Below are positions 43,755 through 50,026 of a stretch of 64,000 bases of DNA, in pieces. Position 1 is the stretch's first letter. Every line of letters starts with the position of its first letter. The notes below the pieces were generated by a model. It was not told where the DNA came from. It did no database searches and worked only from the letters and a program-made list of their open reading frames with translations. This stretch comes from Lachnospiraceae bacterium (GTDB lineage: Bacteria > Bacillota > Clostridia > Lachnospirales > Lachnospiraceae): the NCBI GenBank assembly GCA_017618075.1, contig JAFZUY010000012.1, forward strand, positions 1 to 64,000, read 5' to 3'. Position numbers and translations under genes: made by a program.

Positions 43755-44639
43755 ATGAGTAAGAAAAGGATAGTAATCTCCGCTGCAATATTTGTAGTGC
43801 TGATTGCCTGCCTGATTGCAGGAATAATCCTGACGAACGATCCGAACAGGGTACAGGAAGAAACCATCAAGGAAGTAATGAAGGACGCAGTTCTTCACGA
43901 AAACGTCAAGGTTTCGTTATTCGGACTAAAAGATGTAAATCCCGGACTTATAGCCGCATTCTGGACTACCGGAATTGTACTCTTTGTTTCTTTAATAATC
44001 CGAATCTTTGCAGTACCCAAATTTAAGCTTATCCCCGGCAAGTTCCAGATAGCCGTGGAAAGTGTAGTCGGAATATTCGACGGTACGGCGAGAAGCAACA
44101 GCCCTCATAAATACAGGCTCCTGCAATATTACATGTTTGCCGCGGGTACTTACATATTTACGGGAACCATGTTTGAACTCATTGGTGTGCAGGCAATATC
44201 CACTCACGGAACGCCGATAACCCTTGGTGCTCCGCTCTCGGATATAAATGGTGCCATAATGATGGGCTGTACGACATATTTGTTCATACTGGTTAACGGC
44301 TTTATTACAAACGGACCTATGGGAGCGCTTAAAACCCTAAAAGATTTCTCGCTTCCCATCTCGATGAGTTTCCGTTTGTTCGGTGCTCTTATATCAGGTG
44401 CGCTTGTTACCGAACTCGTATATTACTACATGGCTACGAGTTTTATTATCCCCGTATTTGTCGGTGTACTCTTTACCGCACTGCATGCACTGATTCAGGC
44501 ATACGTCCTTACAATGCTTGCAAGTATATTCTACGGTGAAGTAACCGAGAAACCTGAAAAGAAAGAAAAAGAGAAAAAAAAAAAGTTAAAAAACAGAAAA
44601 CAGTTAGTTCGGAGGTTTAACAATGAAAAATTCCATTAA
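43755..44639 (+). CDS. atpB: ATP synthase subunit a (Fo)
   Basis: Subunit a of the F1Fo ATP synthase forms the ion half-channels against the c-ring. The product is 294 residues. The essential arginine lies in LPISMSFRLFGALISG, and the last-helix motif is QAYVLTMLASIFYGE. There is an N-terminal helix and an extracellular segment before the core. The C-terminus is an unusual Lys/Glu-rich tail (about residues 264-294) that runs 17 nt into atpE. The ribosome-binding site is AAGGA. It is the first gene of the atpBEF-A-GDC set; no atpI is visible. Confidence 0.94.
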   Translation: MSKKRIVISAAIFVVLIACLIAGIILTNDPNRVQEETIKEVMKDAVLHENVKVSLFGLKDVNPGLIAAFWTTGIVLFVSLIIRIFAVPKFKLIPGKFQIAVESVVGIFDGTARSNSPHKYRLLQYYMFAAGTYIFTGTMFELIGVQAISTHGTPITLGAPLSDINGAIMMGCTTYLFILVNGFITNGPMGALKTLKDFSLPISMSFRLFGALISGALVTELVYYYMATSFIIPVFVGVLFTALHALIQAYVLTMLASIFYGEVTEKPEKKEKEKKKKLKNRKQLVRRFNNEKFH

Positions 44640-44985
44640 GGCTCTTATCTTGACATTATTCCTTGCATTATCTTTAGGAATCGCATTTGCACCCGTAAAG
44701 GTATATGCGGCAGGAAGCGATGATGCAGCTATCGTAAAGGCAGAAACAAACGATAACGACGTTGTAGTTGCAAAGGCTGTTACAGCTGCAGTTGTTGTAT
44801 CTGTAGTAGCAGGTTTGGGTGCCGTATCAATGTGTCTTGCAATTATGAAGGTTGCAGATTCAACAGCACGTCAGCCCGAAGTAGCAGGCAGACTTTTCAC
44901 AATGATGATGCTTGGTTTGGTATTCATAGAGACCGCTATTATTTATGGTTTGATTGTTGCAATTTTCATCGTATTCATTTTGTAA
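44623..44985 (+). CDS. atpE: ATP synthase subunit c with N-terminal leader
   Basis: The rotor-ring subunit. At 120 residues it is longer than the usual 70-90, because a signal-peptide-like leader (about 1-29, ending VYA) and an acidic linker (about 30-47) precede the hairpin. The loop ARQPE is conserved, and the ion-binding glutamate is in FIETAIIYGL. The first-helix GxGxGxGxG motif is degenerate (AGLGAVSMCLAIM), and Met aligns where Na+-type rings have Gln, so a proton ring is more likely. CGGAGG precedes the start. It overlaps atpB by 17 nt. Confidence 0.92.
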   Translation: MKNSIKALILTLFLALSLGIAFAPVKVYAAGSDDAAIVKAETNDNDVVVAKAVTAAVVVSVVAGLGAVSMCLAIMKVADSTARQPEVAGRLFTMMMLGLVFIETAIIYGLIVAIFIVFIL

Positions 44986-45006
44986 ATTTAAGAAGAGGCA
45001 GGAATT

Positions 45007-45498
45007 ATGAAATTACCGCTTAACATAGATGTTCAGCAGATTCTTTTGCATCTTTTGAATTTCACGATTCTTTTCGGCGGATTGTATTTTATCCTTTACA
45101 AGCCCGTCAGAAAGATCATGGACGAGAGAGAAGAACATTTTAAGAAACTCGAAGAAGAGGCTAACGGCAAAATCGAAGAGAGTGAAAAGAACAGAGTTGA
45201 GTATGAAAACAAGTTAAAGAATGCCGACTCCGAGATTAACGCTCAGAAAGAAGCAGCCGGAAAAGAAACCTTTGCCGACAGGGAAAGGATTATTACCGCT
45301 GCCAATGATGAAGCTGCGAAGATTCTTAAAAAAGCAAGAGAAAAAGCCAACGCAGAACATGACAGAATTATAAGTGAAGCTCAGAAAGAAATCGCTGAGA
45401 TAGTAAATGAGGCTACCGAAAAAATCGTACTGGATTCAAATCTGGATACTTACGATGAGTTTTTAAATGCCGCAAATAAGGACGAAAGCAATGTATAA
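45007..45498 (+). CDS. atpF: ATP synthase subunit b
   Basis: The peripheral stalk subunit: one N-terminal TM helix (about 10-30, LLHLLNFTILFGGLYFILYKP) and a long charged coiled coil to residue 163. The length is usual. It should bind the delta function at its C-terminus. There is no atpH gene after it: its stop (45496-45498) overlaps the start of the alpha gene, which carries a delta-like N-terminal domain. Confidence 0.94.
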   Translation: MKLPLNIDVQQILLHLLNFTILFGGLYFILYKPVRKIMDEREEHFKKLEEEANGKIEESEKNRVEYENKLKNADSEINAQKEAAGKETFADRERIITAANDEAAKILKKAREKANAEHDRIISEAQKEIAEIVNEATEKIVLDSNLDTYDEFLNAANKDESNV

Positions 45499-47233
45499 CG
45501 ATTCGGTTTTCAGTGTGCTTTATGCGGCAAAAGAGCCAACGGAAGCACAGTTAAACAAACTAAAGAGTTTCCTTGCCGGAAAATATGACAAAGAAGTTTT
45601 CATTGAATGGGTTGAGGACGAGAACGTAACAGACGGTTTCCGTCTCGAAGTCGGTACTGATGTATACGACTGGACCAATGCCGGAAGACTCGAACAGTTC
45701 AAGGAAATGATAAAGAATGTCGGCAAAAAGGCAAGTTCGGATTCGAATATCATTCCTCTAATCAAAGAGAACATAAAAGACTGGACACCGAGCGGTGCAC
45801 CCGTTGAATTCGGTGTAGTTACAAGTATCGGTGACGGTATTGCAACAGTTTCGGGACTTAAGACTGCAACCTACGGAGAGATTCTTTTATTCTCCGAGGG
45901 TATCAGAGGAATGGTTCTTGATTTAAGAGCCGACGAAATCGGTTGTATTCTTTTTGACGATACGGATTCCGTATGTGAGGGCAGCAGAGTTAAAAGAACA
46001 GGCAGAAGTGCCGGCGTTCCCGTAGGCAACAATTTCCTCGGAAGAGTTATTAACCCCTTGGGACTTCCTATCGACGGTCTCGGAGATATCGATGCGGACG
46101 ATTACAGAGCCATTGAATCACCCGCACCAGGAATCATTGAAAGACAACCTGTCGACAAACCCATGGAAACGGGTATCCTCTGTATCGACTCGATGTTCCC
46201 CATCGGACGCGGTCAGAGAGAGCTTATCATCGGCGACAGACAGACCGGTAAAACAGCTATTGCACTTGATACAATCGTAAACCAGAAGGGTAAGGATGTT
46301 ATCTGTATCTATGTATCCATAGGACAGAAAGCCAGCCTTATTTCACAGATGGTTACCAATCTTAAAAAACACGGAGCAATGGACTATACAATCATTGTTA
46401 ACGCCTCCGCATCCGATGCAGCTCCTTTCCAGTATATAGCACCTTATTCAGGCTGCTCGCTGGCAGAGTATTTCATGCATCAGGGTAAGGACGTACTTAT
46501 CGTATACGATGATTTGTCAAAGCATGCTATTGCATACAGATCACTTAGTCTTTTGCTTGACAGATCTCCCGGACGTGAGGCTTATCCCGGAGACGTATTT
46601 TATCTGCATTCAAGACTTCTTGAGAGAGCGGCACATTTAAGTGACGAACTCGGCGGAGGTTCTATTACCGCACTTCCCATCGTCGAAACACAGGCAGGCG
46701 ATGTTGCGGCATATATTCCGACTAACATTATTTCAATTACGGACGGACAGATTTTCCTTGAAAGCGAACTGTTCTTTGAAGGCCAGAGACCTGCGGTTAA
46801 TGTCGGTCTTTCGGTTTCGCGTGTCGGCGGCGACGCACAGACGAAGGCTATGAAAAAATCCAGCGGTTCATTAAGGCTTGATCTGGCACAGTACAGGGAA
46901 ATGGAAGTGTTCACACAGTTCTCGTCCGATCTTGACGAAGCAACGCAGAAACAGCTTACCTACGGCCACGGACTTATGTATCTTTTAAGACAGCCGCAGT
47001 ACAAGCCTTATTCACAGCATCAACAGGTAATTCTTCTTACGGTTGCATTAAACAAGTATTTTATGGATGTCCCCGTAAAAGAAATACAGGATGAAATGGT
47101 TAAGCTTCTTGACTATTTCGAAATTTCACATCCCGATATCTGTTCGAGAATCGACTCGACCGGTCGTATCGAGGATGATGACAAACAGGCGATTCTTGAT
47201 TACGCCAGAGAGTTTAAGGAACAGGGCCGCGAA
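45491..47233 (+). CDS. atpA: ATP synthase subunit alpha with fused delta C-terminal-like domain
   Basis: The start at 45491 overlaps the atpF stop and follows AAGGA by 8 bp. The product is about 580 residues against some 500-515 normally. Residues about 6-77 look like the C-terminal domain of subunit delta (OSCP): AQLNKLKSFLAGKYDKEVF, then DGFRLEVGTDVYDW and AGRLEQFKEMI. A short Ser-rich linker follows, and alpha proper begins near residue 84 (SNIIPLIKENI). The nucleotide site GDRQTGKT is at 248-255, and the DELGGGSITALPIVETQ and VGLSVSRVGG motifs are intact. The delta N-terminal helical domain is not found anywhere in the operon. Confidence 0.95.
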
Positions 47234-47249
47234 TAAGAGGTATTAATAT

Positions 47250-48191
47250 ATGTCGAATATGAAGGAGATAAAAGGTCATATTCAGAGCGTTAGGGATACT
47301 CAGAAAATCACCAACGCCATGTACCTTATATCCTCCAACAAAATGAGAAAGATAAAAAAAGAACTCGACAAGACCAAACCGTACTTTGAAGAAGTGGCCT
47401 TAAGCATCAGACGAATCTTCAAGACGGTTAAAAACGTTCAGAGTGATTATTTTTATCCTGCCGGCAATACGTACGAAATAGAGGGTACGTATGCATATCT
47501 TGTTATTACGGCGGATAAAGGTCTTGCGGGTGCTTATAACCAGAATGTCATTAAGGAAGCAAGCAAGCTGATGACTAAAAAGCATGACAAGCTTCTTTTT
47601 GTTGTGGGTGAATACGGAAGAAGATATTTTACTTCAAAAAACATCCCCATAGAAAAGACATTTCTTTACACGGCTCAGAATCCCACACTTGCGAGAGCAA
47701 GAGAGATATCGGACCTTCTGCTTGATTTGTACGACAATAAAAAGATTGCGAAGATTTATATAATCTTTACCGATTACGAAAGCGGTATGGAAGCAAAGGT
47801 TAAAGTAATGAGACTGCTTCCTTTTAACAGATCCGATTTCAAGTTAAGCAAAAAAGAACTTGAAGAAGAGCAGAAATCAACCAGAGGTTTTGTATGGCCT
47901 CAGGGCGATATAGAGTTTTATCCCAATGCGAGAGAAGCGCTTGACAATATGATTTCAAGCTACGTAACGGGAATTATTTACGGTGCACTCGTAGACAGCT
48001 TCTGTTCCGAACAGAGTGCGCGTATGAATGCGATGGAATCCGCCAACAGAAATGCGGAAGAACTCATCGAAAAACTTACAGTTCAGTACAATCACACCAG
48101 ACAGGCGGCAATCACTCAGGAGATAACCGAGGTTTCCGCAGGTGCACGTGCAAAGAAGAAAAAGAAAGAAAAAGCACTGGCAAGACAATAG
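47250..48191 (+). CDS. atpG: ATP synthase subunit gamma
   Basis: The central rotor shaft. The product is 313 residues, slightly long. The N-terminal coiled-coil helix (MKEIKGHIQSVRDTQKITNAMYLISSNKM) and the C-terminal helix (ARMNAMESANRNAEELIEKLTVQYNHTRQAAITQEITEV) are typical. A Lys-rich tail (AKKKKKEKALARQ) extends the end. The ribosome-binding site is GAGG; a second possible start is three codons later. It lies 14 bp after alpha. Confidence 0.95.
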   Translation: MSNMKEIKGHIQSVRDTQKITNAMYLISSNKMRKIKKELDKTKPYFEEVALSIRRIFKTVKNVQSDYFYPAGNTYEIEGTYAYLVITADKGLAGAYNQNVIKEASKLMTKKHDKLLFVVGEYGRRYFTSKNIPIEKTFLYTAQNPTLARAREISDLLLDLYDNKKIAKIYIIFTDYESGMEAKVKVMRLLPFNRSDFKLSKKELEEEQKSTRGFVWPQGDIEFYPNAREALDNMISSYVTGIIYGALVDSFCSEQSARMNAMESANRNAEELIEKLTVQYNHTRQAAITQEITEVSAGARAKKKKKEKALARQ

Positions 48192-48202
48192 TGTTTTTAT
48201 AA

Positions 48203-49612
<1,410 letters not shown>

Positions 49613-49615
49613 AGT

Positions 49616-50026
49616 ATGAACAGTTTTTCGCTTCATATTCTTGCCGCCGAGAGAAACTTTTACGAGGGTGAATGTTTAAGTCTCGTGGTTCCGATTACGG
49701 ACGGCTCATACGGCATTATGGCTCATCATAAAAACATGGTGGCCGCCATAGTTCCCGGCATAATGGAATATTCGCTTCCCGAAGGTGAGAGAGTGGTTGT
49801 CTGTGTATCACAGGGAATACTTGTTGTGGCCGACAATGACGTAAAGGTTTTGGTGGATACGGTCGAGACTCAGGAAGAAATAGATGAGAACAGGGCCAAG
49901 GCTGCCGCTGAACAGGCCAAGGAGGCCATGCTTCAGAAGAAGAGCATTCAGGAATACAAATCGGCACAGATGCGAATTGCCAGAGAGATGAACAGACTGA
50001 AACTTAAAAACAGAAACAGAACATAA
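49616..50026 (+). CDS. atpC: ATP synthase subunit epsilon
   Basis: The product is 136 residues: an N-terminal beta-sandwich (FSLHILAAERNFYEGECLSLVVPITDGSYGIMAHHKNMVAAI) and a C-terminal helical hairpin rich in Glu, Ala and Lys that may inhibit ATP hydrolysis. It is the last gene of the operon and is followed by a strong terminator 4 bp after the stop. Confidence 0.95.
   Translation: MNSFSLHILAAERNFYEGECLSLVVPITDGSYGIMAHHKNMVAAIVPGIMEYSLPEGERVVVCVSQGILVVADNDVKVLVDTVETQEEIDENRAKAAAEQAKEAMLQKKSIQEYKSAQMRIAREMNRLKLKNRNRT

What the first reader, a model, noticed from the sequence alone, without database searches (positions are those of the whole stretch)
45491..47233. ATP synthase delta C-terminal domain fused to alpha; no separate atpH
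The alpha ORF starts in the atpF stop codon and carries about 75 extra N-terminal residues that read like the delta/OSCP C-terminal domain (residues 6-77, with DGFRLEVGTDVYDW and AGRLEQF). The delta N-terminal six-helix domain, which normally caps the alpha N-termini, is absent. With three alpha per enzyme, a covalent fusion would give three delta-like domains, against one delta normally, or proteolysis must occur. A b-delta fusion is known in mycobacteria; I do not know of a described delta-alpha fusion.
Basis: partly seen in the sequence, partly recalled or inferred. Interest (0 to 1): 0.85.

Follow-up and report, generated by a model that had tools for sequence, protein, structure and literature searches.

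The report
ATP synthase with built-in stalk sockets
In this rumen bacterium the piece of the ATP-making enzyme that normally holds its single outer stalk is fused onto a subunit present in three copies, so the enzyme might carry up to three stalks and work on a weaker proton gradient; related gut bacteria carry the same arrangement.

Summary
The 581-residue alpha ORF (45491-47236) begins with a delta/OSCP C-terminal domain (Pfam OSCP above cut-off at residues 9-72; hhalign probability 99.3). The delta N-terminal domain (NTD) is absent and the operon has no atpH. The start overlaps atpF and has a ribosome site; an internal alpha start is not supported.

The genome does hold another full atpH, in a second, canonical operon with a Na+-type c. 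And such a fusion is in print: Ueno et al. 2025 built it in Bacillus PS3, saw up to three stalks and a-subunits (H+/ATP 5.8), and noted it in Acidaminococcus fermentans.

New here: the 80 best-ranked named relatives (of 572) all share it, across several families; 13 of 18 such genomes searched, four isolates among them, have no separate delta match. A tree shows separate delta, full-length delta-alpha fusions, repeated NTD-less fusions, and one b-delta-alpha ORF; a single origin of all fusions is rejected (AU p 7.6e-6).

Most likely mechanism: three alpha-borne sockets, each able to hold a b2-a stalk, in a proton-type enzyme suited to low proton-motive force. The fusion is shown; the stalk number is inferred.

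The parts
43755..44639 (+). atpB, subunit a (294 aa); keeps the Arg of SFRLFG
   Evidence: Pfam ATP-synt_A E 1.7e-17; Arg motif
44623..44985 (+). atpE, subunit c (120 aa) with a signal-peptide-like N-terminal extension; H+-type (no Gln in TM1, E-T-A in TM2)
   Evidence: Pfam ATP-synt_C E 9.6e-9 at residues 55-116; alignment
45007..45498 (+). atpF, subunit b (163 aa)
   Evidence: Pfam ATP-synt_B E 4.4e-16
45478..45482 (+). ribosome-site-like AAGGA, 8 nt before the fused ORF's ATG
   Evidence: sequence; scan
45491..47236 (+). fused ORF, delta CTD-alpha (581 aa plus stop)
45515..45706 (+). delta/OSCP C-terminal domain within the fused ORF (residues 9-72)
   Evidence: Pfam OSCP; hhalign
45743..47221 (+). 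alpha proper within the fused ORF (residues 85-577)
   Evidence: NCBIfam TIGR00962, 731.7 bits against cut-off 484.45
47250..48191 (+). atpG, subunit gamma (313 aa)
   Evidence: Pfam ATP-synt E 9.5e-87
48215..49612 (+). atpD, subunit beta (465 aa)
   Evidence: NCBIfam TIGR01039, 786.2 bits against cut-off 462.85
49616..50026 (+). atpC, subunit epsilon (136 aa) with its C-terminal helical domain
   Evidence: Pfam ATP-synt_DE_N E 4.8e-20 and ATP-synt_DE E 6.6e-10

Best explanation
The operon makes a complete proton-type F1Fo ATP synthase/ATPase in which delta has been cut down to its C-terminal domain (the b2-binding half) and made the N-terminus of alpha. Each of the three alpha chains therefore carries its own stalk socket. 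The delta N-terminal domain, which sits on the symmetry axis and by Ueno et al. limits the enzyme to one stalk, is gone. The enzyme can thus hold more than one b2 stalk, each bringing an a-subunit; protons per turn become (number of c) x (number of a), so ATP can be made at low proton-motive force or, in reverse, more protons moved per ATP against a low back-pressure. SHOWN here from sequence: the fusion, loss of the NTD, conservation, a complete operon, fused-only genomes, more than one origin, H+-type c. SHOWN by others on an engineered Bacillus enzyme: multi-stalk assembly and a doubled H+/ATP ratio. INFERRED: that this natural enzyme has 2-3 stalks, and the direction in which it runs in the cell.
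For: Same architecture as the engineered chain 9jc1_I: the whole window protein aligns 8-560 to 6-559 (E 1.5e-180), and residues 1-106 align across the junction, 8-98 to 6-97 (E 4.8e-5). That construct gave up to three stalks with a-subunits and H+/ATP 5.8 against 3.0. In 80 of the 80 named loci kept (of 572 relatives) the alpha ORF carries the delta CTD and no separate delta ORF was found. Of 18 of their genomes searched for OSCP, 13 have no separate delta match, among them isolates NE2001, LC2019, Acutalibacter sp. 1XD8-36 and Anaeromassilibacillus senegalensis An867. Fused CTDs are at least as conserved as separate deltas in three of four bins of core divergence (identity 0.38 v 0.33, 0.40 v 0.37, 0.50 v 0.42). 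Full-length and NTD-less fusions interleave on the tree, at least 6 changes. Ion-path residues are kept: a-Arg pattern in 106 of 109 CTD-type operons with an a ORF (two of the three misses keep the Arg, the third is a broken ORF); c-Glu pattern in 109 of 111 (both misses keep a Glu).
Against: No structure or stoichiometry of a natural fused enzyme was found. In the engineered enzyme itself three-stalk particles were very rare by cryo-EM (ascribed by the authors to loss of stalks) and ATP-driven pumping was lower than wild type. Full-length delta-alpha fusions exist (17 in the tree) whose NTD shows no specific decay, so fusion alone does not prove a multi-stalk state. The b-delta-alpha ORF of L044 sets b:alpha at 1:1, which fits neither three b2 stalks nor a single b2 stalk cleanly. 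At core identity 0.60-0.65 the fused CTD is less conserved than separate deltas (0.32 v 0.37, the latter from 2 pairs), and its dN/dS in the genus, 0.26, exceeds that of the canonical delta CTD, 0.146. No proton pump to drive synthesis was identified: the Ech marker is absent from the window genome and from 27 of 28 fused genomes tested.
Confidence: 0.6

Rival explanations
1. Single-stalk enzyme: three delta CTDs are present but only one b2-a unit is assembled, because b and a are limiting or Fo has room for one; the other two CTDs stay empty, and the fusion merely guarantees delta supply.
For: All F-type enzymes examined so far have one a-subunit (Ueno et al.); engineered three-stalk particles were very rare by cryo-EM; full-length delta-alpha fusions keep an NTD, as if one stalk still sufficed there.
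Against: The NTD was lost repeatedly, which would remove the known cap of a single-stalk enzyme; the engineered NTD-less fusion averaged about two stalks by gel and doubled H+/ATP.
Confidence: 0.3
2. Processing or internal initiation releases ordinary alpha, with one delta CTD retained or set free, giving near-normal stoichiometry.
For: Gamma-beta fused ORFs in three relatives have internal beta start sites, so fused ORFs here can be split at translation.
Against: The same scan finds a site of 5 nt or more in the alpha junction zone in 7 of 129 fused ORFs, below the control zone (12 of 129), against 95 of 129 at the N-terminal start. The window has one in-frame ATG there, without a site. Proteolysis cannot be excluded from sequence.
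Confidence: 0.06
3. The canonical delta of the second operon caps the fused enzyme, giving a hybrid with one full delta.
For: 20 of 31 genus genomes hold both operons.
Against: 13 of 18 named fused genomes and 8 family genomes of 96-99% completeness have no separate delta match; each operon has its own set of genes.
Confidence: 0.03
4. Assembly or sequencing artefact, or a decaying pseudogene.
For: The window genome is an incomplete draft of 54 contigs.
Against: Same fusion in independent assemblies and isolates, open frames, dN/dS 0.26 over the domain.
Confidence: 0.01

Closest known systems
Engineered deltaDeltaN-alpha Bacillus PS3 FoF1 (PDB 9jc1) and the natural fusion noted in Acidaminococcus fermentans (Ueno et al. 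2025, PMC12229609)
   Same: Delta NTD missing, delta CTD fused to the N-terminus of alpha; the window protein aligns across the junction.
   Different: Rumen Lachnospiraceae with a second canonical operon; epsilon keeps its C-terminal domain (removed in the engineered enzyme); c has a long N-terminal extension. The Acidaminococcus sequence was not reached, so common descent is untested.
Mycobacterial b-delta fusion (PDB 7jg5 chain d)
   Same: A delta domain fused to another stator subunit; weak match of the window CTD to chain d (E 0.72).
   Different: Delta is joined to b, not alpha, and keeps an NTD (recalled).
N-type ATPases (alternate F1F0)
   Same: F-like second operons; their b model TIGR03321 matches the window CTD weakly (E 0.14).
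   Different: The window alpha and beta fall below the N-type cut-offs; an N-type-like operon among the fetched loci (L057) has another gene order.
Two-ion, two-ATP-synthase metabolism of Pseudobutyrivibrio ruminis (Schoelmerich et al. 2020, seen only through passages of PMC11187502)
   Same: Na+-type and H+-type F-ATPases in one cell.
   Different: The window genome lacks the Ech marker; whether the P. ruminis H+ enzyme is fused was not tested.

Membership tests
F-type (F1Fo) ATP synthase | a, b, c, alpha, beta, gamma, epsilon genes together in one operon | tested here: met
F-type (F1Fo) ATP synthase | alpha and beta over the equivalog cut-offs TIGR00962 and TIGR01039 | tested here: met
   731.7 against 484.45 bits; 786.2 against 462.85 bits
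F-type (F1Fo) ATP synthase | separate delta/OSCP subunit with NTD and CTD in the operon | tested here: not met
   only the CTD, fused to alpha; hence filed as the fused kind below
Natural deltaDeltaN-alpha fusion (kind noted by Ueno et al.) | delta CTD fused to the alpha N-terminus | tested here: met
Natural deltaDeltaN-alpha fusion (kind noted by Ueno et al.) | delta NTD absent | tested here: met
   OSCP match begins at profile position 106 of 172
Natural deltaDeltaN-alpha fusion (kind noted by Ueno et al.) | more than one peripheral stalk and a-subunit | not testable with these tools
   needs stoichiometry or cryo-EM; not shown for any natural member either
Natural deltaDeltaN-alpha fusion (kind noted by Ueno et al.) | common descent with the Acidaminococcus fusion | not tested
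   that sequence was not reached
N-type ATPase | cut-offs of TIGR03324 (alpha) and TIGR03305 (beta) | tested here: not met
   604.3 against 750.5 and 594.6 against 752 bits
Na+-coupled F-ATPase | c-subunit with Gln in TM1 and Glu-Ser/Thr-Thr in TM2 (motif recalled) | tested here: not met
   window c has no such Gln and reads E-T-A; the genome's canonical operon has the motif
delta/OSCP C-terminal fold | fold match of residues 1-80 to solved delta structures | tested here: inconclusive
   the whole-model second look is filled by alpha chains; the domain alone was not folded, queue full

The most novel reading that the evidence does not exclude
Native F-type ATP synthases with up to three stalks and three a-subunits are a standing design in gut and rumen Clostridia. 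They evolved more than once, mainly by one route (delta and alpha fuse, then the delta N-terminal domain is shed), giving an H+/ATP ratio up to the number of c-subunits: a low-gear proton enzyme, in the window's genus usually carried beside a single-stalk Na+-type enzyme in the same cell.
Probability: 0.42. Interest if true: 0.92.

Novelty: new member of a known kind. Interest (0 to 1): 0.7.

Why it matters
Ueno et al. write that all ATP synthases so far have one a-subunit; they engineered a multi-stalk enzyme and pointed to three natural candidates. The window gene leads to many more: the candidate architecture occurs in several families of gut and rumen Clostridia, in cultured isolates where it is the only delta-like gene found, and has more than one origin. 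That makes natural variation of the H+/ATP ratio through stalk number directly testable. The series (separate delta, full-length fusion, NTD-less fusion, b-delta-alpha ORF) offers natural constructs for asking what the delta N-terminal domain does.

Tried and rejected
Internal start for alpha: not supported (in each zone the best candidate start was scored). Contamination as the source of the second operon: unlikely, 20 of 31 genus genomes hold both. Proton circuit with Ech: the marker PF00346 is somewhat enriched with fusions among 119 family genomes (6 of 22 v 8 of 97, Fisher p 0.023; for all divergent operons 9 of 48 v 5 of 71, p 0.080), but it is absent from the window genome and from 27 of 28 fused genomes, so it is not used as explanation. 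Canonical delta with Rnf: no association (63 of 73 v 42 of 46, p 0.56). Decay of the NTD in full-length fusions: no specific signal. Phylum survey: the match list was cut before weak matches, so it could not count fusions; replaced by a class survey with a fused-domain profile. The order survey list was cut too and is not used for counts. Genus of the b-delta-alpha genome: one genome held, so that ORF rests on one assembly. Structure: the pdb_via second look on the full model showed 50 entries, matched mainly over the alpha part; 9jc1 was not among them, which is no evidence against the match. Foldseek 'pdb' got no slot. Literature: searches in the open-access library gave natural multi-stalk candidates only in Ueno et al.; its supplement was not read. 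A second one-clade test, without L040, L224 and L225, did not finish and was not repeated, so a single origin of the remaining fusions is not formally tested.

Full report
WHAT IS THERE. The window carries a complete ATP synthase operon, a-c-b-[delta CTD-alpha]-gamma-beta-epsilon (43755-50026, + strand). The alpha ORF, 45491-47236, encodes 581 residues and overlaps atpF by 8 nt; AAGGA lies 8 nt before its ATG. Residues 9-72 match the last part of Pfam OSCP (positions 106-170 of 172; E 8.8e-7 and 29.6 bits in the whole protein, E 4.7e-8 and 33.7 bits for residues 1-106; cut-off 22.3). NCBIfam atpA begins at residue 85. A profile of 26 fused N-termini against 12 separate deltas gives hhalign probability 99.3, E 1e-20. 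The AlphaFold2 model (48 rows, mean pLDDT 81.8, pTM 0.77) has strand 6-12, helix 18-32, strands 36-42, 51-54 and 57-60, helix 63-80, then helix 87-96 and the alpha barrel from 105. The structure comparison of the whole model was filled by alpha, so the fold of the small domain was not tested by itself.

THE OTHER ATPH. The window's genome (2.44 Mb, 54 contigs, 89% complete, 2.2% contamination) has two OSCP matches at E 10 or better: the fusion and a full delta, E 5.1e-45. The latter lies in a complete canonical operon, a266-c84-b173-delta181-alpha501-gamma290-beta463-epsilon135 (L058), whose c reads GIGPGVGQG and AETTGLYG, the Na+-type pattern (pattern recalled). In the genus 31 genomes were searched (own included): 24 have a fusion, 27 a separate delta, 20 both, 4 only the fusion, 7 only the separate delta. 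The second operon is therefore unlikely to be contamination.

SPREAD. In all 80 the alpha ORF carries the delta CTD and no separate delta ORF was found; where the contig reaches, the gene order is that of the window (some loci are cut by contig ends). The nearest is a yak-rumen Lachnospiraceae MAG, 100% over 250 residues. Record titles, many of them of MAGs, name Lachnospiraceae, Eubacterium, Anaerovoracaceae, Oscillospiraceae, Acutalibacteraceae and others; isolates are Eubacterium ruminantium FB3002, Lachnospiraceae NC2008, NE2001 and LC2019, Acutalibacter sp. 1XD8-36 and Anaeromassilibacillus senegalensis An867. Of 18 of the 80 genomes searched for OSCP, 5 also have a separate delta and 13 do not, among them NE2001, LC2019, 1XD8-36 and An867. 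In an even draw of 293 genomes of the class (own included, others at least 90% complete) a profile of the fused domain matched 41 at E 1e-6 or better: 18 in ORFs of CTD-fusion size (one of 509 aa not inspected), 8 in full-length-fusion ORFs of 671-691 aa, 15 in short separate ORFs; the 26 fusions fall in 12 families.

TRANSFORMATION SERIES. Among 119 family genomes (own left out), classed by hand from the table: 73 have a high-scoring separate delta, 26 a divergent separate delta, 9 a full-length delta-alpha fusion (669-679 aa), 12 a CTD-only fusion, 1 a b-delta-alpha ORF. Of the 22 fused genomes 13 also have the high-scoring delta and 9 do not; one of the 9 (G075) has delta pieces at contig ends, leaving 8 at 96-99% completeness. 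Cut or fragmentary cases (G089, G065, G110:C42, G005) were not counted as fusions. A tree of alpha core, beta and gamma from 105 operons (59 CTD, 28 separate, 17 full, 1 triple; 27 of the 80 named loci used; L042 and L057 left out by choice, L091 and L095 as incomplete) puts the window in a 45-row CTD-only clade with 100% SH-aLRT support. A 60-operon tree made before most of these loci were fetched gives the same interleaving. Full-length and CTD-only forms interleave (L033 with L050, 99%; L035 with L052, 100%), at least 6 changes; separate and fused need at least 5. Such counts cannot tell gain from loss; that the NTD was lost rather than regained in register is inference. Six full-length fusions of genus g366 (100%) sit beside a separate-delta operon of the same genus (L220, 99%), a clear independent fusion. 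Holding all fusions as one clade is rejected (AU p 7.6e-6, log-likelihood 576 lower; 69 rows, 42 fused and 27 separate, 36 of the 105 dropped for speed); distant rows such as L040 contribute to this, and the test without them did not finish. Trees are short searches with SH-aLRT support only, and L040 and L043 are long branches. In 13 of 27 separate-delta operons delta and alpha overlap by exactly 4 nt, a junction that one change of frame could fuse.

ONE POLYPEPTIDE? In 129 fused ORFs a ribosome-site match of 5 nt or more stands before the best N-terminal start in 95, in the 40-codon junction zone in 7, and in a control zone of the alpha core in 12. The same scan finds a site of 5-8 nt before beta in the three gamma-beta fused ORFs (L043, L226, L227), so it can detect internal starts. 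The window's junction zone has one in-frame ATG (residue 73), without a site; Met stands there in 11 of 48 relatives.

IS THE DOMAIN FUNCTIONAL? Median dN/dS in the genus (pairs with dS 0.1-1.2) is 0.26 over residues 8-76 (40 pairs), 0.065 over residues 171-580 (54 pairs) and 0.33 over 520-580 (15 pairs); for the genus's canonical delta it is 0.193 in the NTD (24 pairs) and 0.146 in the CTD (15 pairs). So the fused domain evolves faster than the canonical one but under constraint; dS near 1 makes these values rough. P16, G49, F50 and Q69 are invariant in 48 fusions, Y59, D60 and W61 nearly so. At equal core divergence the fused CTD is at least as conserved as separate deltas in three of four bins; in the fourth (0.32 v 0.37) the separate value rests on 2 pairs. 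The alpha N-terminal helix is kept (L90 in 48 of 48, W98 in 45 of 48) although its NTD partner is gone. Ueno et al. state that one of the three alpha N-termini touches the delta CTD, so each may now bind its own CTD: inference.

HOW IT MOST LIKELY WORKS. The engineered PS3 fusion with the same parts (PDB 9jc1; whole-chain alignment 8-560 to 6-559) gave up to three stalks each with an a-subunit, about two on average by gel, H+/ATP 5.8 against 3.0, and a halved equilibrium pmf (68 against 133 mV); three-stalk particles were very rare by cryo-EM and ATP-driven pumping was lower. The authors propose protons per turn = Nc x Na and name the natural A. fermentans fusion. By the same logic the window enzyme has three sockets and can hold more than one stalk. 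Of 111 CTD-type c ORFs, 110 lack the TM1 Gln (L040 is the exception) and all keep the TM2 Glu (109 by pattern, two by eye), so the ion is most likely H+. Whether the enzyme mainly makes ATP or pumps protons is open: the Ech marker is absent here and in 27 of 28 fused genomes, while an RnfC match is present. P. ruminis is reported to run Na+ and H+ ATP synthases side by side (passages of PMC11187502), the nearest physiological parallel. Against the multi-stalk reading stand the full-length fusions and the b-delta-alpha ORF of L044, whose 1:1 b:alpha ratio fits neither three b2 stalks nor one.

NOVELTY. The architecture has been in print, briefly, since 2025, so the window gene is a new member of a known and hardly explored kind. 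Its breadth, its repeated origin, the full-length fusions and the b-delta-alpha ORF did not turn up in the searches and 77 of an open-access library; the supplement of Ueno et al. was not read. What was seen of papers: PMC12229609 outline, abstract, passages and sections 6 and 13; PMC11187502 and PMC4478896 passages; PMC5376962 one passage; others search listing only.

Noticed in passing
L044:4156-6492: One 778-aa ORF joins b, the delta CTD and alpha, with no Met between the end of b and the delta CTD; no separate b was found in the operon. One genome only.
   Followed up: partly
L043:6217-8517, L226:6315-8699, L227:6297-8657: Gamma and beta lie in one ORF (766-794 aa) in three relatives; each has an internal ATG with a ribosome site at the beta start, so beta can be made alone.
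   Followed up: yes
L214-L219 and L220: Within genus g366 six genomes have a full-length delta-alpha fusion (679 aa) and one has separate genes.
   Followed up: yes
window 44623-44985; c ORFs of L093-L172: Subunit c carries an N-terminal, signal-peptide-like extension of roughly 45 residues, and long c ORFs (mostly 100-165 aa) go with the window clade. Role unknown.
   Followed up: partly
L040:4449-6194: A distant CTD-only fusion with two b-like ORFs upstream and a Gln in c TM1, probably a separate origin.
   Followed up: partly
L043:4005-4688: b fused to a delta CTD (227 aa) beside a separate alpha: another way of rehousing the delta CTD.
   Followed up: no
L061, L084, L085: Two tandem c genes with identical or nearly identical products in separate-delta operons.
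   Followed up: no
L057: An N-type-like operon (beta, epsilon, then a, c, b, alpha, gamma) in G110, which also has a divergent separate-delta F-type operon (L061).
   Followed up: no
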